Shown here: positions 5,340 to 39,684 of the stretch, piece by piece
Layout: each line of letters begins with the position of its first letter
Numbering within the stretch: position 1 is the stretch's first letter
Assembly (NCBI GenBank): GCA_028284665.1
Contig: JANQRG010000011.1
Coordinates: 62,001 to 126,000 of the forward strand
From: Croceivirga sp.
GTDB taxonomy: Bacteria > Bacteroidota > Bacteroidia > Flavobacteriales > Flavobacteriaceae
DNA length: 64,000 nucleotides
Direction of reading: 5' to 3'
Program-made: the position numbers and the translations under genes
The notes under the pieces: generated by a model
What the model was told of the DNA's origin: nothing
Database searches by the model: none
What the model saw: only the letters and a program-made list of their open reading frames with translations

Positions 5340-6428
5340 ATGAAGACAACCGCACTCACTGATATCCATATAGCGCTTGGAGCGAAGATGGTGCCTTTTG
5401 CCGGTTATCAGATGCCGGTCTCCTATGAAGGGGTGAATATAGAACATGAGACGGTTAGAAATCATATGGGAGTATTTGATGTTTCCCATATGGGTGAATT
5501 TCTGATTGAAGGGCCCAATGCTTTGGATCTGGTACAAAAGGTTACCTCCAATGATGCCACAAAACTTACCGTTGGGAAAGCACAATACAGTTGTATGCCC
5601 AATGAAAGTGGAGGTATTGTGGATGATCTGATTGTGTATCGGGTTAAGGAGGAGACCTACTTATTGGTAGTAAATGCAGCTAATATTGAAAAAGACTGGG
5701 AACACATCGCCAGATACAATACTACCATTAAGGCGGGTATGCGTAATATTTCTGACGACTACTCCCTACTTGCCATCCAGGGACCAAAGGCGGTTGAAGC
5801 TATGCAATCCCTTTCCTCACATGACCTTGCAGCGATAAAGTTTTACCATTTTATTGTTGGGGACTTTGCAGGTATTGAACATGTCATAATTTCGGCCACA
5901 GGATATACCGGCTCCGGTGGGTTCGAGGTCTATTGTAAAAACTCCGAAGCAGCACAGATCTGGGAGAAGGTGTTCGAAGCAGGAAAAGCCTATGGGATCA
6001 AACCTATAGGTCTTGCAGCACGTGACACCCTACGCCTGGAAATGGGGTATTGCCTGTACGGTAATGATATTGACGATACTACCTCTCCTTTTGAAGCAGG
6101 ACTTGGGTGGATCACAAAATTCACCAAGGATTTTGTGAACTCCGAAGCACTGCAACTAGAAAAAGAGCATGGGCCAGAACGAAAGCTTGTAGGGTTTGCG
6201 TTAACCGAAAAAGGAATTCCACGACAGGGGTATCCCATACTAAGTAGCGAAGGAAAGGAGATCGGGAAAGTGACTTCCGGCACAATGTCCCCTTCCCTGG
6301 GGAAAGGGATTGGATTGGGGTATGTTCCCCCTGATTTTGCTGCTGCAGGCACTGCAATTCAAATCCAAATCAGGAAAAACCATGTTCCGGCCACCATAAC
6401 TAAGCCTCCTTTTTACAAACAGAGTTAA
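5340..6428 (+). CDS. gcvT: Aminomethyltransferase (glycine cleavage T protein)
   Basis: This 362-residue protein is the T subunit of the glycine cleavage system. It moves the aminomethyl group from lipoylated H protein to tetrahydrofolate, releasing ammonia. The N-terminus ([18 protein letters not shown]), the VSHMGE motif and the GFEVY segment are standard for the family. The other glycine cleavage genes (gcvH, gcvP) are not nearby, which is common in this phylum. The 105-base upstream gap is AT-rich with no exact TAnnTTTG box. The gene stops on the base before the glsA ATG, so the two probably share an mRNA. Confidence 0.96.
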
Positions 6429-32809: not shown

Positions 32810-33163
32810 TTACCACTTCGGCCGTCGTTTAATCACCAGGGCATAAAAAAGCATGATCACTGCTGAGAAGATCATCCCCAGGGCTTCCCGACCTTTTTCG
32901 ATATTTACGATGTCACCTTCGCCTATGGTGACACCCTCGAATTCTTGCGGCCAATTGTAGATACCAAATCCCAAATAAAAACCGAACAGCAAAAGCGCCC
33001 AGGTAAATTTAAGTCTTCCCAGAGCGAATAAAATGGAAGCCAGGGCTGCCACACCATATAGGACATACCATCTCAGGGCATCAGGGTCATTGTACTGCAC
33101 GGCAGCAGCCCAAACAAACAAGGCTGCCAACCCGAAACCTACTATTTTTAAAAAATTATTCAT
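32810..33163 (-). CDS. Transmembrane family 220 (TMEM220-like) protein
   Basis: A 117-residue inner-membrane protein with about four membrane helices and the QYNDPD motif (residues about 23-28) characteristic of TMEM220. The function of the family is unknown. Its ATG overlaps the stop of eboF by four bases, so it is the last, translationally coupled gene of the ebo operon. Its stop lies one base from the dnaX stop on the opposite strand. Confidence 0.85.
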   Translation of the reverse strand: MNNFLKIVGFGLAALFVWAAAVQYNDPDALRWYVLYGVAALASILFALGRLKFTWALLLFGFYLGFGIYNWPQEFEGVTIGEGDIVNIEKGREALGMIFSAVIMLFYALVIKRRPKW

Positions 33164-34545
33164 TGGTTGGAAGGTTTTATTTTCTCTTCCAAAATACGAA
33201 ATACTTCTGTTGCGGGAATAGTATCCTCCAATTTATCGGAATTCATAGTGCCATGTATTATGACGGGCCAATCTTCCTTATCTGTGGGTACAGCACCATG
33301 TGATCCTTTAACCAATTCGGCTTTTAGGGGAATTACATCCATTACGGTTCTAAAACCCATTTTCTTTTTAACCAGTTTCCATAGCACTTTGGGTACCACA
33401 AAGGGATCTGAAGGGTCCGTAAACATCTCCACCGGATCATAACCCGGTTTTTTATGGATATCCACCATTCTCGCATAATCGGGGGCTTTTGACTCTTCCT
33501 CCCAAAAGTAGTAGGTAAACCAGGACGAAGGGGCTGCAATGAGTACAAAATCCCCGCTACGGTCATTTGCCAGACCGGCGGATTCAAGCACCGTACCATG
33601 CAATACATTTTCTACCCCTTGTATGCCCTTCAACAGATCGCCAACAGCATCCTTTACCGATGGGTCATTTACATAAACATGCGCAATTTGATGGTCTGCC
33701 ACCGCAAAAGCCTTGCTTGCACCGGCATCCAACAACTCCAGACCGCGTTCCACTCTTATCCCTAAATATCCTGCCTTTCTCAGAATACGGTTCAGGTGTA
33801 TCGGATGATCTACATTGGTAATACCATATTCCGAAAGCAGCACAACATTTGCATGTTGCTTCTGATAGTGTTTCACAAGTTTTTCCACAACAGCATCAAT
33901 CTCTTCCAAATCTTTTTTTATCACCGAGAAATTCAGCCCGTGCCGCTGCAAATTATAATCCAAATGGGGCAAGTACACCAGGGAAAGCGTAGGATCATGC
34001 CATTGATCCGTTAGTATAGCTGCATTTGCAATCCACTCGCTGGATCTTATAGAGGTCTTGGGACCCCAAAAATGGAATAAGGGAAAAGTTCCCAATTCTT
34101 TCTGAAGTCTATCCCGTAATCCGGTAGGATGCGAATAGACATCCGGAATTTTTCTACCGTCCGCCAGGTAATTAGGCCTTGGCGTTACGCTGAAGTCTAC
34201 CGTAGAGTACATATTGTACCACCAAAAGAGATTGGCACAGGTAAAATCAGGGACTTCTTTTCGGAGTTTTTCCCAGATCTTAGGGGCCTGGACCAATTTA
34301 TTGCTTTGCCTCCAAAACTTTACTTCACATTCCGTTTTAAAATACCATCCGTTTCCTACAATACCGTGTGTTGAAGGTCTTTCCCCTGTGAGGTAGGTGG
34401 CCTGTGCAGTACAGGTCACCGCCGGCACCACCGGTTCTATAGTCTGTAGTACATGCCCTTCTGTAAATCTCTTTAGAAAAGGAGTGTGCTCTCCGATCAG
34501 TCGTTTGGAAAGCCCGACGACATTGATCACTACTGTCTTTGTCAT
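33160..34545 (-). CDS. eboF: EboF: alkaline-phosphatase-superfamily phosphodiesterase / pyrophosphatase
   Basis: A 461-residue protein of the type I phosphodiesterase/nucleotide pyrophosphatase family. The nucleophile region PAVTCTAQATYLTGERPSTHG (shown only in part here) contains the catalytic Thr that normally attacks phosphate. Metal-ligand candidates are in the LPHLDYNLQRHG segment, LLSEYGIT and DHQIAHV, with a C-terminal GSHGAV histidine. No signal peptide is seen. In the ebo cluster this is the sixth gene; the substrate is unknown. Its ATG overlaps the eboE stop by four bases and its stop overlaps the TMEM220 gene. Confidence 0.88.
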   Translation of the reverse strand: MTKTVVINVVGLSKRLIGEHTPFLKRFTEGHVLQTIEPVVPAVTCTAQATYLTGERPSTHGIVGNGWYFKTECEVKFWRQSNKLVQAPKIWEKLRKEVPDFTCANLFWWYNMYSTVDFSVTPRPNYLADGRKIPDVYSHPTGLRDRLQKELGTFPLFHFWGPKTSIRSSEWIANAAILTDQWHDPTLSLVYLPHLDYNLQRHGLNFSVIKKDLEEIDAVVEKLVKHYQKQHANVVLLSEYGITNVDHPIHLNRILRKAGYLGIRVERGLELLDAGASKAFAVADHQIAHVYVNDPSVKDAVGDLLKGIQGVENVLHGTVLESAGLANDRSGDFVLIAAPSSWFTYYFWEEESKAPDYARMVDIHKKPGYDPVEMFTDPSDPFVVPKVLWKLVKKKMGFRTVMDVIPLKAELVKGSHGAVPTDKEDWPVIIHGTMNSDKLEDTIPATEVFRILEEKIKPSNQ

Positions 34546-35735
34546 GCTAATTTTTCTTTTAGCCAGTGCAGTTCCCGGATTATGGATTCCGTTATATCCA
34601 ACTTTAGTTGAGCAGGTAAAACCTCCCAGGTATAGGTCTCTACCTCAACATGTTCTGTAACAGCATGTTTTCTTACATAAGCAACCACCTTAAGGATATC
34701 GTCTTGAGTAGAATACAAGTGTCCGTATTCTTTTAAGAAAATAGGGACATGAAAATGTGCCCGTAGTTCTTTGAATTCTTTTTGTTCGCGTAGTACGACG
34801 GGCAAATCGGGATAGGTAGTTACATCATTGTCGCTTAGCTCAGTCACTTGGTGAAGATAAACGGGTTCGTCAAACTCCGAAAGCATTTCCCAAATTTCAG
34901 CTATCGATCTTTCATTCCACAGTATTTTAAGCGCAGCGCTCACCTGTATTTTTCCAACTTTGATCCCGTTTTCCGCTAACAAGGGAAACGTGTTTTGAGG
35001 GTCTTCATAGGCCAGGGAATAATGACAGATATCGTAGCAAAGGGTGATGTATTTTTTCAATAGCACTCCAGCGGTATTCGCATTAATCCCTTTCGGAGCA
35101 AAGGTTTTTTTAACTGCTTCCAGCAGATATTCATTAAAAAAGGACAGGACGTCCTGTGTGTTTTCCAAAAGTCCATCCGGCTCCGGCTCAATATCGAGGT
35201 GCAGGTACTTTCCGGTCTCGGCTTCCAGTTCATATAAAAACACCGCAATCTGAGCCATATGGCTTGCTCCCTGCGCTAAAGCCTCTTTTTTCTCGTTGGC
35301 TGAAGCATGCCAATGCTTATAACTAATTGGTGAGGTTGAAATACCTCCCGAAATTCCAGGTGGCATTAAAAAAGCTAGTTGTTTAAAAAGTCGCCTGGTA
35401 TAGTCAATTCGCTTTGTTGTAGTCCAGTCAGGAGCATGCACAGCATCTTTTACCCGTTCATGGTGAAAATTCCCATAGGGAAATCCGTTCATGGTGTAGA
35501 CGTATAATCCGTTACTATCCAACCACGACTTAAAATCCTTTAGGTTGTCAGAAAACCCCAATTCCTCACTGGCAATATTGGAAAGCCTTAGCCCCAGGCC
35601 AAAATCCGAATTCGGAGAAACTTGTTGTTTAATGGCCGGGACATTTTTTTGAAGGTTTTCAAACGTGATCTTCCAATTTTCCCCGGGGTGAATATTGGTA
35701 CAATAAGAAAGGTGAAGGTGTTTTCGAATTAACAA
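34542..35735 (-). CDS. eboE: EboE: TIM-barrel metabolite traffic protein
   Basis: A 397-residue protein resembling the xylose-isomerase-like TIM-barrel superfamily. It begins with a strand containing histidine and asparagine near the barrel opening (HLHLSYCTNIHPG), has the LHLDIEPEPDG segment and a TLCYDICHYSL metal-site-like strand. It belongs to EboE, whose reaction is unknown. The only available start is a TTG at 35735, which overlaps the eboD stop by seven bases; no ATG lies close by in frame. Confidence 0.88.
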   Translation of the reverse strand: MLIRKHLHLSYCTNIHPGENWKITFENLQKNVPAIKQQVSPNSDFGLGLRLSNIASEELGFSDNLKDFKSWLDSNGLYVYTMNGFPYGNFHHERVKDAVHAPDWTTTKRIDYTRRLFKQLAFLMPPGISGGISTSPISYKHWHASANEKKEALAQGASHMAQIAVFLYELEAETGKYLHLDIEPEPDGLLENTQDVLSFFNEYLLEAVKKTFAPKGINANTAGVLLKKYITLCYDICHYSLAYEDPQNTFPLLAENGIKVGKIQVSAALKILWNERSIAEIWEMLSEFDEPVYLHQVTELSDNDVTTYPDLPVVLREQKEFKELRAHFHVPIFLKEYGHLYSTQDDILKVVAYVRKHAVTEHVEVETYTWEVLPAQLKLDITESIIRELHWLKEKLA

Positions 35736-36898
35736 AACAACTCTTCTTTTAAGGCGCTTCTTATAATGATAGCCCTGGACATCTTTTCATGATCAATCTC
35801 ATGGACATCGTATTTTTCACCAATTCCTGAAATCAACGTAATCGTCAGTTTTCCTCCCAGGTGTTCCCTAAACTCTTGCAAGCCTTTTATCAGTTCCTGT
35901 TTTTGTTTCATTGTACTAACTGGCAGACTTAAATCGAAACCGATATCAGACAATACTTCGAGCACGCTATGTAAGGTTTCCTGATCAATAAGACCTATAA
36001 AATGGGCATAAGTGACATCCAGGGTAATTCCCATAGCCACCGCCTCGCCATGTCGTAATTGATAGGAAGTCATTTGCTCCAGCTTATGTGCCGCCCAATG
36101 TCCGAAATCCAACGGTCGGGAGGAACCATTTTCAAACGGATCACCCCCCTGCGCTATATGCTCCATGTGTAATTGCGCACATCGGTAGATTACATGGGAC
36201 ATCACCTCTATATTTCGTTCCACAAGTGGTTTAGTATTGCTTTTTATGTAGTCAAAAAAGGCACCGTCTTTAATGAGTGCTACTTTTATCGCTTCTGCAA
36301 TTCCGGAGATCCAGTCGCGTTGTTCAAGGGTTGCCAAAAAGTCAAGATCATTTATAATGGCAAATGGAGCGGCAAAAGCTCCAATAAAGTTTTTCTTCCC
36401 AAATTTATTTATACCGTTCTTTACCCCTACCGCAGCATCATTTTGTGCAAGAACTGTTGTAGGAATGCGAATAATTTTTACTCCGCGATGCGCGGTAGCC
36501 GCCGCATAACCCGCCATATCAATTACTGCTCCTCCTCCAACTGCGATTACAAAAGAATGCCGGCAAATGGATAGGTCATTAATTTCTTCAAGGACAACTT
36601 CCAATTGATTGTGATCATTTTTACTTGCTTCTCCAGCACTAACAAGGAGAACTTTAGTAAGATCAAGGCTATTTTTATGTTTGGAACAGTATTTTTTGAT
36701 GTCCGAAATTAAATCGGGATAATGACTTACCAGCCCTTTGTCCACTACAAATAGCAATTTCACTGGACCAGCTTCCCCAAAAGCTTCAATGAGTTCTGCC
36801 AATAGCGTATTGGCTGTACTGAAAACCCCCTCCGTAAAATGGAGTTGGTAGTTGTGTTGCACTGTAAACGACTGGTAAATAGGCTTCAATGGAGTCAT
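35729..36898 (-). CDS. eboD: EboD: 3-dehydroquinate synthase-like sugar-phosphate cyclase
   Basis: A 389-residue AroB-like protein. The NAD-binding AVGGGAVIDMAGYAAA, the RIPTTVLAQNDAAVGVKNGIN motif, the ISGIAEAIKVALI segment and the metal histidines in RHGEAVAMGIT are present. The VGVKNGINKFGKKN variant differs from canonical AroB, as in the EboD and 2-epi-5-epi-valiolone synthase branches. It is therefore probably a sugar-phosphate cyclase acting on another substrate rather than the housekeeping AroB. The frame extends upstream to 36982, inside eboC; the ATG at 36898 (MTPLKPIYQ) leaves an 8-base gap and is preferred. Confidence 0.9.
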   Translation of the reverse strand: MTPLKPIYQSFTVQHNYQLHFTEGVFSTANTLLAELIEAFGEAGPVKLLFVVDKGLVSHYPDLISDIKKYCSKHKNSLDLTKVLLVSAGEASKNDHNQLEVVLEEINDLSICRHSFVIAVGGGAVIDMAGYAAATAHRGVKIIRIPTTVLAQNDAAVGVKNGINKFGKKNFIGAFAAPFAIINDLDFLATLEQRDWISGIAEAIKVALIKDGAFFDYIKSNTKPLVERNIEVMSHVIYRCAQLHMEHIAQGGDPFENGSSRPLDFGHWAAHKLEQMTSYQLRHGEAVAMGITLDVTYAHFIGLIDQETLHSVLEVLSDIGFDLSLPVSTMKQKQELIKGLQEFREHLGGKLTITLISGIGEKYDVHEIDHEKMSRAIIIRSALKEELFC

Positions 36899-36906
36899 AC
36901 GCAAAG

Positions 36907-37806
36907 TTAAGTAACCGCAAATATCTTGGAAAGTAAAATGGACAGTGGTAAGAATAAAACGATTAACACTCCTAACATCCAATTGGAATGCGCCACTGCA
37001 ATGGTGGCATCCAACAGGATCAAAGAAAGTACGCCAGCTTTTACAGCATTTCTTATCTGCTCGGGACCATTTTCACGATAGGCCTTACGCAGCGGAACAA
37101 AGACCGCACCGCTAAAGATCAAAAGAAAATAGACGTAGCTATTATTCACCGCTCCAAATTTATTGTTCAATAGGATAACGAAAAGGATCACAAAAACATA
37201 TAATACCCCTGCAAGTACGATACTTTTTTTGTTTTTTCCATGGACTTCTCCCTGACTTACACGGGTTATTGCAAAAATGTAAAGGATCGGGACAAGACAA
37301 TACCATGCTTGTGTAAAGCTGCCAAAATATACCATCCCTAATAAGAGATTTAGACCTCTGCAAACTCCCATATTTAAAGGCCCCCAAAAGTGATGATGTT
37401 TGGAAAACTTATCGTACAACAGGATTGCCAGGGACAACACTACTGCTACCACCCCATGTAATTTCCCTACAAAAAAGGAGGCCCCAACTCCTGTTGATAA
37501 TAGTAGTACTCCAAAAAACAAAGCATGATTGAGGGGAACAATTCCTTTTGGAATGGGTCTTTCCGGTCGTTCTATCGTATCCAGTTCAACATCAAAAACG
37601 TCATTGAGGACTACGCCACCTGCATATAACAGTACAGAAGCCAACACCAGGGAGACCGCCTTATAGTCCAAAAACGGTTGAAAATACCCGATTGACTCTT
37701 GCGCGAAAAATCCAGCAAGCGCCAACCCGGCGATAATATCAGCTGCAGCAGTAGGTAGATTTGGAGGGCGGCATAGTTGCAAATAGCCTTTTAAGACCTT
37801 GCCCAT
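36907..37806 (-). CDS. eboC: EboC: UbiA-like membrane prenyltransferase
   Basis: A 299-residue integral membrane protein with about eight or nine helices. The first prenyl-diphosphate motif is NDVFDVELD (NDxxDxxxD, near residue 70) followed by RPERPIP. A weaker second motif is YDKFSKHH near residue 140. The protein should transfer a prenyl group to a hydrophilic acceptor, possibly the product of EboD. The ATG at 37806 shares its A with the eboB stop (TGATG), so translation is coupled. Confidence 0.9.
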   Translation of the reverse strand: MGKVLKGYLQLCRPPNLPTAAADIIAGLALAGFFAQESIGYFQPFLDYKAVSLVLASVLLYAGGVVLNDVFDVELDTIERPERPIPKGIVPLNHALFFGVLLLSTGVGASFFVGKLHGVVAVVLSLAILLYDKFSKHHHFWGPLNMGVCRGLNLLLGMVYFGSFTQAWYCLVPILYIFAITRVSQGEVHGKNKKSIVLAGVLYVFVILFVILLNNKFGAVNNSYVYFLLIFSGAVFVPLRKAYRENGPEQIRNAVKAGVLSLILLDATIAVAHSNWMLGVLIVLFLPLSILLSKIFAVT

Positions 37807-38714
37807 CAAACGATCTTCTCATTTTCAACCTTTGGCTGCTGTCCTCGCAGTACACTGTTATCGTTAAACAGAAGCCGTTGGTCTATTCCGGCAGCATCTT
37901 CCCAATGCGAAGCCTTCATTTTACCAGACTTCCCGAAAGTATCCAGGGCATTTTGATAGCAGGTTTTGATCACATCTTCCCTTGAGATCCCTTTCTTCAA
38001 CATCAACCCGGCTGTTTTGGGCACTGCTAGTGGATCACTAACCCCCCAATCTGCTGAACTATCTACAATGATGTTCGTGCTCCCAAAACGTTCTACTACC
38101 GCCACCATTCGTTCATTTCCCATTTTAGTTTTCGGGTAAATCGTGAAGGCAGCGATAAAGCCGCGATCCAACACCTCTTGTACCGTTTCTTCGTTATTGT
38201 GGTCTATGATTACCATGGCAGGATCCAGGCCATGTTCCAAACACACTTCCATACTTCGTATAGTACCCGCCTTTTTATCACGATGTGGCGTATGCACCTG
38301 TACTAACATATTAAACTCCTTGGCCAACTCCAGCTGTTGTCTAAAGTATTTATCCTCCTCCGGAGTTTGATCGTCATAGCCGATCTCCCCAATCGCAACT
38401 ACGTTGTCTTTATGGAGATACAGCGGTAATAACTCCATTACCTGTTCGGCCAAAGGTTCATTATTGGCTTCCTTTGAATTTAGGCCAATGGTACAATAAT
38501 GCTTTATGCCAAACTGGCTGGCCCTAAAAGGCTCCCAACCGACCAAGCTACTGAAGTAATCCTGAAAAGAACCTACTTGCGTCCTAGGCTGGCCTAACCA
38601 GAAGGAAGGTTCAATTACGGCAACCACACCTGCCTTGGCCATTGCCTCATAATCGTCCGTAGTACGTGAGGTCATATGAATATGCGGATCAATAAATTGT
38701 AATTTCTCTTCCAT
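37806..38714 (-). CDS. eboB: EboB: TatD-family metal-dependent hydrolase
   Basis: A 302-residue amidohydrolase-superfamily protein. It starts with the HxH metal motif in DPHIHMTSRT, has EIGYDD (carboxylate ligand), QVHTPHRD and IDHNNEE further on, and a late SADWG aspartate. All are consistent with a TatD TIM barrel. In the ebo cluster it is the second gene. The substrate is unknown. It starts two bases after the eboA stop. Confidence 0.9.
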   Translation of the reverse strand: MEEKLQFIDPHIHMTSRTTDDYEAMAKAGVVAVIEPSFWLGQPRTQVGSFQDYFSSLVGWEPFRASQFGIKHYCTIGLNSKEANNEPLAEQVMELLPLYLHKDNVVAIGEIGYDDQTPEEDKYFRQQLELAKEFNMLVQVHTPHRDKKAGTIRSMEVCLEHGLDPAMVIIDHNNEETVQEVLDRGFIAAFTIYPKTKMGNERMVAVVERFGSTNIIVDSSADWGVSDPLAVPKTAGLMLKKGISREDVIKTCYQNALDTFGKSGKMKASHWEDAAGIDQRLLFNDNSVLRGQQPKVENEKIV

Positions 38715-38716
38715 AT

Positions 38717-39574
38717 CTAATTTTTAATCGTTTTCCATGTTATTTGTTGCTGTTCTACTTCCAATCTGTGCTGAGGATATTCTTCAAGCAACGCCGCTCC
38801 GGTAGTTGAAGTAGCATGAAAACACACCAGTGTTGCTGCTCTGTTTTCAGCGGTATTTTCGCTATTAAAAAGCCGTTTAATATCGTTTACCAGGGGGCCT
38901 TCGAGAAAACTGGCAACGGGTCGCCATATTTCCGGATCTATCTCCCGTGATGCCGCCCAACGCTCATGTGCATAATCTGATATTATCCTCGCTAACGCTT
39001 TGTTCGCACGTTCTTCGACTCCCATAATACGGCCAAGATCCCGTTGCATGAAAGCTGCCTTTAAATACATTTGGTTCCATTGTTGCTCGTTAAAATATCG
39101 GGAAGGATAAGGATTCCCCAGGGCAATGGCATCAAATACATCTGCAACATTGGTCCGCAGTGCCTCCACTGCTGCACTTTTAAATTTTTCTGACTGCGGT
39201 ACTATGATCAGGTATTTGAGGATAGTCACCAGCTCTTTGTTGTCCGCAATTTGTAGTAGCTGTTGCACTTTTGGCACAAAAAAAACCGGATCTGATGCAA
39301 TAGCAGCGGTAAGCAAAGCAATCCGACCGACTTCCATCTCCTTAGCTTCTCTTTCCGAAAAAAAAAGGGTTATCGAACTGTTTTTCCTATTGTTCCATTG
39401 TATTTTCTGGTCACCCAACTTTGTTCCACAAAGACTAAAGGAAATAAACAATTCCCTTGCAGACTTAGAAGTGGTGATTCGCTTAATTTTTTCGAATAAC
39501 CATTCTTTTTTAGTAGTCTCAAAATAGTACCTGACGATTTCCAGAAGTTCTTCTCCGGAAGTATTGCTGTGCAT
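38717..39574 (-). CDS. eboA: EboA family protein
   Basis: A 285-residue protein with no recognisable catalytic motif and a predicted mainly helical, repeat-like structure (helix pairs around LLTAAIASDP and LKYLIIVPQ). Its place at the head of the cluster, followed by EboB-F in the canonical order, identifies it as EboA. Members are of unknown biochemical role; annotations call them metabolite traffic proteins because ebo mutants of Nostoc fail to move a scytonemin precursor to the periplasm. The divergent gene is miaE, 110 bases away. Confidence 0.85.
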   Translation of the reverse strand: MHSNTSGEELLEIVRYYFETTKKEWLFEKIKRITTSKSARELFISFSLCGTKLGDQKIQWNNRKNSSITLFFSEREAKEMEVGRIALLTAAIASDPVFFVPKVQQLLQIADNKELVTILKYLIIVPQSEKFKSAAVEALRTNVADVFDAIALGNPYPSRYFNEQQWNQMYLKAAFMQRDLGRIMGVEERANKALARIISDYAHERWAASREIDPEIWRPVASFLEGPLVNDIKRLFNSENTAENRAATLVCFHATSTTGAALLEEYPQHRLEVEQQQITWKTIKN

Positions 39575-39601
39575 ACTGATGGAACTAAAATGTGTTTTTC
39601 A

Positions 39602-39609
39602 CAAAGATA
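39602..39609 (-). promoter_or_regulatory. Candidate -7 promoter element of the ebo operon
   Basis: On the minus strand the bases read TATCTTTG, an exact TAnnTTTG, 27 bases upstream of the eboA ATG. The -33 box is not a match. It is the only such element in the 110-base gap shared with the divergent miaE gene. Confidence 0.45.
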
Positions 39610-39684
39610 ACTATCAATCTGTCCATTATAGTATAATCCGTTTGGAATACTTGTATCTTTATGCGCTGGTAACCCGTACTTAAG

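What the first reader, a model, noticed from the sequence alone, without database searches (positions are those of the whole stretch)
32810..39574. Complete eboA-F cluster with a seventh coupled gene (TMEM220)
Six genes in the canonical order eboA, eboB (TatD), eboC (UbiA), eboD (AroB-like), eboE (TIM barrel) and eboF (phosphatase-superfamily) form one tightly packed operon, with overlaps of 1-7 bases at most joints. The last gene, TMEM220, overlaps eboF by four bases. The ebo cluster is known in cyanobacteria (scytonemin precursor export), a Pseudomonas (grazer deterrence) and eustigmatophyte plastids, where it was probably acquired from bacteria. No product is known. From the family functions I infer a cyclised sugar derivative (EboD) prenylated at the membrane (EboC). 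TMEM220 may be an overlooked member that handles the product at the membrane.
Basis: partly seen in the sequence, partly recalled or inferred. Interest (0 to 1): 0.75.

Follow-up and report, generated by a model that had tools for sequence, protein, structure and literature searches.

The report
Ebo operon with TMEM220 partner gene
A flavobacterium carries the known six-gene ebo cluster, which makes or exports an unidentified small molecule, and a seventh gene for a small membrane protein of the TMEM220 family turns out to sit beside ebo in several different arrangements across the Bacteroidota, so it is probably an overlooked, though not obligatory, partner.

Summary
In detail: eboA-F in canonical order on the minus strand (39574 to 33160), with TMEM220 (33163-32810) overlapping eboF by four bases. 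The cluster is a new member of a known kind. In 299 Flavobacteriaceae genomes TMEM220 occurs in 54 of 59 with EboE and 23 of 240 without; in 47 of the 59 it lies beside ebo. In 392 Bacteroidota genomes it occurs in 27 of 35 with EboC and 27 of 357 without. It sits at different places in different lineages (after eboF; before eboA, same or opposite direction; convergent after eboF; before eboE of a permuted operon), so inheritance of one locus does not explain it. It is not obligatory: of 146 genomes of a cyanobacterium's phylum 5 have EboE and none TMEM220, and some flavobacteria keep TMEM220 at the old site without ebo. The model is a four-helix membrane protein whose conserved residues probably face the periplasm. 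EboF lacks several expected metal ligands, so calling it a phosphatase is doubtful. What TMEM220 does is not shown.

The parts
38717..39574 (-). eboA, 285 aa; all-helical protein without a significant structural match
   Evidence: NF035938 EboA domain 154.6 bits over cut-off 50; NF035937 173.5 bits, under its cut-off 320; AlphaFold2 model pLDDT 95.6, 17 helices; no PDB match at E<=0.001
37806..38714 (-). eboB, TatD-like metal-dependent hydrolase, 302 aa
   Evidence: PF01026 65.5 bits, cut-off 27
36907..37806 (-). eboC, UbiA-type prenyltransferase, 299 aa from the ATG that overlaps the eboB stop by one base
   Evidence: NF035940 361.6 bits, cut-off 250 (ORF taken there from TTG 37809); nearest solved relative digeranylgeranylglyceryl phosphate synthase 6m31
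35729..36898 (-). eboD, sugar phosphate cyclase (AroB-like), 389 aa from ATG
   Evidence: NF004852 555 bits (cut-off 333), PF01761; below the AroB cut-off of TIGR01357, while the genome has a separate AroB above it
34542..35735 (-). eboE, TIM-barrel protein, 397 aa, TTG start
   Evidence: NF035939 472.5 bits, cut-off 250
33160..34545 (-). eboF, alkaline-phosphatase-fold (PF01663) relative with altered metal site, 461 aa
   Evidence: PF01663 204 bits, cut-off 23; ligand positions changed
32810..33163 (-). TMEM220-family four-helix membrane protein, 117 aa, ATGA overlap with eboF
   Evidence: PF15071 76.9 bits, cut-off 27; AlphaFold2 model pLDDT 94.3, helices 3-25, 29-47, 53-69, 85-112
39575..39684 (.). 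intergenic region between divergent miaE and eboA, where the operon promoter should lie; a TATCTTTG (flavobacterial -7-like, motif recalled) stands at 39609-39602 on the - strand
   Evidence: the motif is at chance frequency in the window (72 found, 65.65 expected), so no more than a candidate

Best explanation
This is a complete ebo operon in a Flavobacteriaceae genome (most likely genus Croceivirga), and TMEM220 is a seventh, accessory member of the ebo system in part of the Bacteroidota. Proposed mechanism: EboD (cyclitol or related ring) and the soluble EboB, EboE and EboF prepare a small molecule in the cytoplasm, EboA probably organises or assists at the membrane, EboC attaches a prenyl chain in the inner membrane, and TMEM220, the only other membrane protein of the operon, acts after EboC on the periplasmic face, through a polar site made by the NDxD loop and the ExxRE segment, to take over, release or finish the lipid-linked or exported product. 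Shown here: gene content, order, overlaps, repeated linkage, predicted four-helix fold, conserved residues and their probable side. Inferred: the order of steps, the periplasmic site as functional, and the product-handling role.
For: Co-occurrence: 54 of 59 EboE+ against 23 of 240 EboE- Flavobacteriaceae; 27 of 35 EboC+ against 27 of 357 EboC- Bacteroidota; stratified by family p = 4e-11. Also without linkage: among EboC+ genomes where TMEM220 is not adjacent, 17 of 25 still have it, or 13 of 21 if the four EboC-only genomes of family f52 are dropped. Linkage in different architectures: after eboF on the same strand (41 of 59 by distance in Flavobacteriaceae, one more at 4.6 kb), before eboA on the same strand (6 of 59; also Sphingobacteriaceae and a Sporocytophaga MAG), divergent before eboA (3 of 7 named Chitinophaga loci), convergent after eboF (Hymenobacter, a Cyclobacteriaceae MAG, and Adhaeribacter at 2.2 kb), before eboE in the order T220-E-F-A-B-ThuA-C-D (G323). 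It is the most recurrent non-ebo neighbour, 53 of 112 loci. TMEM220 tree: at least 15 changes of adjacency. Only EboC and TMEM220 show clear membrane helices. N25 D26 D28 W32 E89 R92 E93 are the same in all 41 aligned sequences; NDxD and ExxRExxG each stand in 102 of 104 sequences of the wider set; they lie in loops opposite to the positively charged side. [quoted passage not shown]
Against: TMEM220 is dispensable for ebo elsewhere: of 146 genomes of a cyanobacterium's phylum 5 have EboE and none TMEM220. 8 of 35 EboC+ Bacteroidota lack it; of 80 named ebo loci 40 show no TMEM220 in the stretch held, some of them cut by contig ends. ebo is dispensable for TMEM220: 23 of 77 TMEM220+ Flavobacteriaceae have no EboE, and it stays between miaE and dnaX without ebo (L066; L141, L142, L145, L146, L147, and L159, L160 where ebo lies on another contig). 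Away from ebo it has no dominant partner and sometimes neighbours sugar-oxidation genes. No structural relative gives a biochemical clue. The TMEM220 tree is short and poorly resolved (52 of 101 inner branches open).
Confidence: 0.42

Rival explanations
1. Guild neighbour: TMEM220 is an independent envelope protein connected with periplasmic sugar oxidation (ThuA/GSDH/cytochrome c proteins, glycoside 3-dehydrogenases). It is repeatedly placed beside ebo because both serve the same physiological programme, not because it touches the ebo product.
For: A ThuA-GSDH-PKD protein or a relative of BT_2158 glycoside 3-dehydrogenase lies in 10 of 31 stretches with ebo and TMEM220 outside the dnaX/miaE site, 3 of 53 ebo stretches without TMEM220, and 8 of 40 TMEM220 stretches counted as without ebo, one of which (Adhaeribacter L225) does hold eboE and eboF (Fisher 0.003 for the first two, not corrected for kinship). 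TMEM220 persists without ebo.
Against: At the commonest site (miaE-ebo-TMEM220-dnaX) no such gene is found in 22 of 23 stretches. The ATGA overlap with eboF and co-occurrence without linkage (17 of 25) point to a closer tie.
Confidence: 0.3
2. Self-protection or uptake: TMEM220 protects the cell from, or recovers, the ebo product, like an immunity gene of a biosynthetic cluster; this would explain why it is kept after ebo is lost.
For: TMEM220 without ebo at the miaE-dnaX site in six Flavobacteriaceae genomes, with NDPD and ExxRE visible in all eight sequences printed from that site (two of them from genomes with ebo elsewhere); ebo genes in a Pseudomonas are needed to deter a nematode (PMC6282210, passage).
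Against: TMEM220 is also found in genomes of other families without EboC (27 of 357) and a family member is studied in human cells, so it is not tied to this product; I know of no toxicity of the product.
Confidence: 0.12
3. Passenger: TMEM220 stayed next to ebo in Flavobacteriaceae only because the block miaE-ebo-TMEM220-dnaX was inherited as one locus.
For: The same locus recurs through Flavobacteriaceae, so the downstream cases are few independent events.
Against: At least four other arrangements, in other families and within Flavobacteriaceae with other TMEM220 lineages; 3 of 9 families that have both genes show adjacency, p about 1e-7 for random placement under my assumption of 4 slots in 3500 genes.
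Confidence: 0.06

Closest known systems
ebo cluster (eustigmatophyte and bacterial operon), ABCDEF type of Bacteroidetes and Cyanobacteria (PMC5133447)
   Same: All six genes, same order, same families, tight packing; the same type was described for many Bacteroidetes.
   Different: TMEM220 as a coupled seventh gene: 'tmem' has 0 occurrences in the main text of PMC5133447, PMC6282210 and PMC9235831 (supplements not seen). The first says that in some cases extra genes inserted in ebo operons code for uncharacterised or hypothetical proteins, whose analysis was beyond its scope.
Ubi-297 / EboC of Maribacter, Zobellia and Algoriphagus (PMC9235831, abstract and passages)
   Same: A UbiA-type enzyme of the ebo cluster; EboC of this window matches the EboC equivalog NF035940 and keeps the NDxxDxxxD motif.
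   Different: Substrate of this window's enzyme not tested; the native acceptor was not established in the passages seen.
Nostoc punctiforme ebo cluster, export of scytonemin monomer (PMC6282210, abstract and passages)
   Same: Homologous EboA, B, C, E, F; EboD nearby.
   Different: No scytonemin genes were looked for here; the cyanobacterial genomes sampled show no TMEM220 (0 of 146).
Human TMEM220 (Golgi; knock-down disturbs Golgi shape and glycoprotein secretion, PMC6979480, passages)
   Same: Pfam PF15071 is the TMEM220 family.
   Different: No human sequence was compared here; no ebo relation; biochemical function not known from what I saw.

Membership tests
ebo cluster, ABCDEF type | six genes eboA to eboF in this order and on one strand | tested here: met
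ebo cluster, ABCDEF type | EboC and EboE match the curated equivalog models above cut-off | tested here: met
   NF035940 361.6 of 250; NF035939 472.5 of 250
ebo cluster, ABCDEF type | EboA model above cut-off | tested here: inconclusive
   domain model NF035938 154.6 over 50; subfamily model NF035937 173.5 under 320
ebo cluster, ABCDEF type | EboD is a sugar phosphate cyclase distinct from housekeeping AroB | tested here: met
   TIGR01357 240 bits, under cut-off 305, while a separate AroB in the genome scores 331; against that AroB the family has K to H in the LKSEVV/LHMEHI stretch, N to D before FGH, and no DKK motif (compared by eye; roles of these residues recalled)
ebo cluster, ABCDEF type | role in making or exporting a small molecule | not testable with these tools
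   needs mutants
TMEM220 (PF15071) | profile match above gathering score | tested here: met
   76.9 bits, cut-off 27; 0 of 14 control genomes ring
TMEM220 (PF15071) | four membrane helices with conserved NDxD and ExxRE (features observed here, not a published definition) | tested here: met
ebo cluster with TMEM220 as an obligatory seventh member | TMEM220 in every ebo+ genome | tested here: not met
   54 of 59 Flavobacteriaceae, 27 of 35 Bacteroidota, 0 of 146 genomes of a cyanobacterium's phylum, 5 of them EboE+
catalytic type I phosphodiesterase (PF01663) | two-metal site, D/T/D/H and D/H/H as listed for phosphonoacetate hydrolase (PMC7916636, passage) | tested here: not met
   aligned with a canonical paralogue in L037, 108 of 108 EboF rows have Q, E and Y at three ligand positions (H, D, H) and keep T and one D; the first D aligns to a gap (EboF reads VVG), the last H could not be aligned (24 of 132 rows left out)
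3-dehydroquinate synthase (AroB) | TIGR01357 above cut-off | tested here: not met
   note that NF004852, also named 3-dehydroquinate synthase, is above its cut-off (555 of 333)

The most novel reading that the evidence does not exclude
TMEM220 proteins are membrane carriers or enzymes with an outward-facing NDxD + ExxRE site acting on a prenyl- or sugar-linked small molecule. Bacteroidota joined this part to ebo several times independently to bring the ebo product to or across the outer leaflet, and the animal Golgi protein keeps a related activity, which would explain its effect on glycoprotein secretion.
Probability: 0.2. Interest if true: 0.82.

Novelty: new variant of a known kind. Interest (0 to 1): 0.6.

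Why it matters
ebo is widespread, needed for scytonemin export in Nostoc and for grazer deterrence in a Pseudomonas, and still has no agreed chemistry. A membrane partner that recurs in several arrangements gives a concrete gene to delete and a second protein to test with EboC. It also gives the TMEM220 family, which includes a human Golgi protein of unknown biochemistry, a bacterial genetic context. The altered metal site of EboF warns against assuming an ordinary phosphatase.

Tried and rejected
Rejected: passenger-only inheritance of TMEM220. Rejected: TMEM220 as obligatory ebo member. Rejected: EboD as the housekeeping AroB.

Led nowhere: fold searches of TMEM220 (113 PDB matches at E<=10, best 1.8) and EboA (439 matches at E<=10, best 0.46, many of the listed ones HEAT/ARM-type solenoids); sequence searches of PDB with TMEM220 and EboA profiles (0 at E<=1) and EboE profile (0 at E<=0.1). 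Pfam census of neighbours of TMEM220 away from ebo: 16 loci were skipped as dnaX/miaE sites or repeats, 134 neighbours of 100 aa or more remained, 106 of them were scanned (most over about 750 aa and a few others dropped by hand); no dominant partner: xylose-isomerase-like TIM barrel 6, Gfo/Idh/MocA 5, DUF7133 4 of 106. Promoter motif TANNTTTG is at chance frequency. Paper searches: TMEM220 in 100 papers, of which the 30 listed titles concern human or animal work; with bacteria 3 papers, none by title on a bacterial TMEM220; PF15071 0 papers; TMEM220 with operon 0 papers.

Corrected on checking: I had first read four EboF metal ligands as replaced; the alignment bears out three (H to Q, D to E, H to Y), with no Asp at a fourth position and the last His unaligned.

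Limits: the genomes of the co-occurrence samples are unnamed. The stratified test uses the genomes printed (29 of 392 without an EboC match were not printed; one of them, G353, was added to family f24). The 80 named loci are the best 80 of 572 by similarity to EboE, so they lean to Flavobacteriaceae. The 112 loci are no unbiased sample (5 duplicate loci left out; extra Flavobacteriaceae loci had been picked for unusual arrangements). One of the 54 TMEM220 matches (G085, EboC-) is under the family cut-off. In one search nothing rang, controls included, so that absence rests on the same model ringing in Bacteroidota; completeness of those 146 genomes was not told. Downstream position in Flavobacteriaceae was judged by distance in all 42 cases, by gene order only in those fetched.
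Full report
What is there. The window (contig 40 of a 4.59 Mb genome in 51 contigs) holds seven genes on the minus strand between 39574 and 32810: eboA, eboB, eboC, eboD, eboE, eboF and a TMEM220-family gene. Four of the six joints overlap by 1, 7, 4 and 4 bases, two have gaps of 2 and 8 bases. TMEM220 starts in the ATGA that also ends eboF. The divergent miaE lies upstream and the convergent dnaX ends one base beyond TMEM220. The genome is grouped in one genus with G391, whose contig of 245357 bases has the length of a Croceivirga radicis record; I infer genus Croceivirga, Flavobacteriaceae.

Is the TMEM220 link more than chance? In 392 genomes of the phylum, EboC is over its cut-off in 35 and TMEM220 is found in 54; both in 27 of 35, TMEM220 in 27 of 357 without EboC (Fisher 7e-20). 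Four of the 35 (family f52) have EboC with no other ebo gene within about 9 kb; without them it is 23 of 31 against 31 of 361. Stratified over the eight families that contain both EboC+ and EboC- genomes the association remains (p = 4e-11). Leaving out the ten genomes where the two are adjacent, TMEM220 is still in 17 of 25 EboC+ genomes, or 13 of 21 without f52. In 299 Flavobacteriaceae genomes, EboE is in 59 and TMEM220 in 77; both in 54 of 59, TMEM220 in 23 of 240 without EboE. Of those 59, 42 have TMEM220 downstream on the same strand (41 at 1.4-1.8 kb from EboE, the place after eboF, and one at 4.6 kb with two other genes between), 6 have it upstream on the same strand directly before eboA, 6 have it on another contig and 5 lack it. 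Three of the five lacking it (G409, G590, G595) keep eboE alone between miaE and dnaX.

Independent arrangements. Gene orders were read with profiles built from the window. Seen: A-B-C-D-E-F-T220 between miaE and dnaX in many Flavobacteriaceae; T220-A-B-C-D-E-F in other Flavobacteriaceae (six unnamed; Salegentibacter, Flagellimonas algicola, Seonamhaeicola and Allomuricauda MAGs), in Mucilaginibacter, Daejeonella and Pedobacter, in three genomes of family f3 (G080, G138, G378) and in a Sporocytophaga MAG; TMEM220 divergent before eboA in three of seven named Chitinophaga loci; convergent after eboF in Hymenobacter sp. BT730, a Cyclobacteriaceae MAG and, 2.2 kb away from an eboE-eboF pair, Adhaeribacter; T220-E-F-A-B-ThuA-C-D in G323. 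Of the 80 named loci, 40 show TMEM220 in the stretch held. A tree of 104 TMEM220 sequences needs at least 15 changes between adjacent and not adjacent, and 18 between arrangements; it is short and poorly resolved, and cannot tell gain from loss. Of the nine families of the phylum sample that have both genes (f52 left out), three show adjacency; random placement would give that with p about 1e-7 under my assumption of 4 suitable slots among 3500 genes. Among genes within two positions of, or inside, 112 ebo loci, TMEM220 is the most recurrent (53 loci). miaE (27), dnaX (24) and a third gene of that site (11) occur only in Flavobacteriaceae loci and one locus without a family name. The next that crosses families is a ThuA protein (9) and a Gfo/Idh/MocA oxidoreductase (7).

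What speaks against a strict partnership. In 146 genomes of the phylum of the cyanobacterium G670, EboE is in 5 and TMEM220 in 0. Many Bacteroidota ebo loci (for example Runella, Dyadobacter, Algoriphagus, four of seven Chitinophaga) have no TMEM220 nearby, although three of three f8 and three of three f10 genomes with EboC carry it elsewhere. Conversely, in L066 and L141, L142, L145, L146, L147 TMEM220 sits between miaE and dnaX without ebo, and in L159 and L160 likewise while ebo lies on another contig. These eight proteins keep the NDPD and ExxRE motifs (sequences printed). Most likely ebo was lost there and TMEM220 kept, so TMEM220 has some use without ebo; the direction of change is my inference.

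What TMEM220 looks like. The AlphaFold2 model of the window protein is confident (pLDDT 94.3, pTM 0.85) and shows four helices. Across the 41 aligned sequences F16, N25, D26, D28, W32, E89, R92, E93 and G96 never vary; in the wider set of 104, NDxD and ExxRExxG are each present in 102. K+R exceed D+E in the N-terminus (28 of 41), the second loop (32 of 41) and the C-terminus (32 of 41), but in the first and third loops only in 0 and 4 of 41. By the positive-inside rule both ends are cytoplasmic and the conserved loops periplasmic (inference). No solved relative was found by fold or sequence. In human cells TMEM220 is reported in the Golgi, and its knock-down disturbs Golgi shape and secretion (PMC6979480, passages). 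In the held papers I found no work on bacterial TMEM220 (searches; of the 100 papers only 30 were listed).

What the other proteins look like. Only EboC and TMEM220 have clear membrane helices (single stretches just over the threshold in EboA and EboD are taken as buried helices). EboC keeps the first NDxxDxxxD motif but has TRxSxxEVxG where its nearest solved relative, digeranylgeranylglyceryl phosphate synthase, has a second acidic motif. EboD is not the housekeeping AroB: the genome has another gene above the AroB cut-off (331 bits; EboD 240, cut-off 305), and EboD differs from it at conserved positions. EboF is the surprise: aligned with a canonical PF01663 paralogue in L037, 108 of 108 EboF rows have Q for the His of DxxxH and EY for the DH of SDHGM; the Thr and one Asp remain, no Asp stands at the place of ADGF, and the last His could not be aligned. 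LSEYGI is at least 90% identical in 132 EboF rows. The ligand list for phosphonoacetate hydrolase is from PMC7916636 (passage). The 2016 paper thought hydrolysis of a phosphate-containing substrate conceivable; this should be held open. EboA is all-helical, as the 2018 paper suspected (TPR-like), without a significant structural match.

A wider context. In stretches with ebo and TMEM220 outside the dnaX/miaE site, a ThuA-GSDH-PKD protein (some with cytochrome c) or a relative of BT_2158 glycoside 3-dehydrogenase (about 500 bits, under that model's cut-off of 750) is present in 10 of 31, against 3 of 53 ebo stretches without TMEM220; it is also near TMEM220 in 8 of 40 stretches counted as without ebo, one of which (L225) holds eboE and eboF. 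This hints that TMEM220, and perhaps the ebo product, belong with periplasmic sugar oxidation. It is a lead, not a result; kinship was not corrected for.

Known and new. The six-gene order, the Bacteroidetes occurrence, and the cyclitol-isoprenoid product hypothesis are published (PMC5133447: section 3.2 first part, sections 3.4 and 3.7 read, other passages). Export of scytonemin monomer and the grazing phenotype are in PMC6282210 (abstract and passages). Farnesylation of 8-hydroxyquinoline-2-carboxylic acid by EboC homologues is in PMC9235831 (abstract and passages). New here, as far as the searches named above reach: TMEM220 as a recurrent partner in several architectures, its independence from ebo in part of the Flavobacteriaceae, the probable outward-facing conserved site, and the altered metal site of EboF (for this last I compared only with the passages of the papers named and made no separate search).

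Verdict. Observation confirmed; interpretation partly supported; the cluster is known, the TMEM220 coupling is a new variant worth an experiment. Mechanism committed to with moderate-to-low confidence: TMEM220 acts at the periplasmic side of the inner membrane after EboC.

Noticed in passing
window 33160-34545: EboF, here and in the 108 family members aligned, has Q, E and Y at three canonical metal-ligand positions of its phosphodiesterase superfamily and no Asp at a fourth.
   Followed up: partly
L128:9555-10775, L129 and L132 (unnamed Flavobacteriaceae G409, G590, G595): eboE alone is left between miaE and dnaX; the other ebo genes and TMEM220 were not found in the 20-kb stretch. Why eboE should be kept alone is unexplained.
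   Followed up: no
L051, L053, L054, L064 (family f52): EboC-type prenyltransferase above the equivalog cut-off with no other ebo gene within about 9 kb, in a shared neighbourhood; TMEM220 lies 44-57 kb away in three of the four genomes and on another contig in the fourth.
   Followed up: no
L133:11797-12372, L137:7312-7896, L180:12581-13165 (L180 is Confluentibacter lentus): Where TMEM220 is missing between eboF and dnaX, a gene for a lipoprotein-like protein of about 190 aa fills the gap.
   Followed up: no
L040:6376-9528: A ThuA + glucose/sorbosone dehydrogenase + PKD + CBM6 protein is encoded inside the permuted ebo operon of G323, between eboB and eboC; similar proteins follow eboF in L192 and L207.
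   Followed up: partly
L187:436-801 and 5517-5921 (Salegentibacter sp. 24); also L126: Two TMEM220 genes upstream of one ebo operon; in L126 the second match is partial.
   Followed up: no
L062 (G178): An ebo operon in which no eboD was found (A, B, C, E, F), like the Leeuwenhoekiella case in PMC5133447.
   Followed up: no
window 39602-39609 (-): TATCTTTG 28 bases before the eboA start resembles the flavobacterial -7 promoter element (motif recalled), but the motif is at chance frequency in the window.
   Followed up: partly
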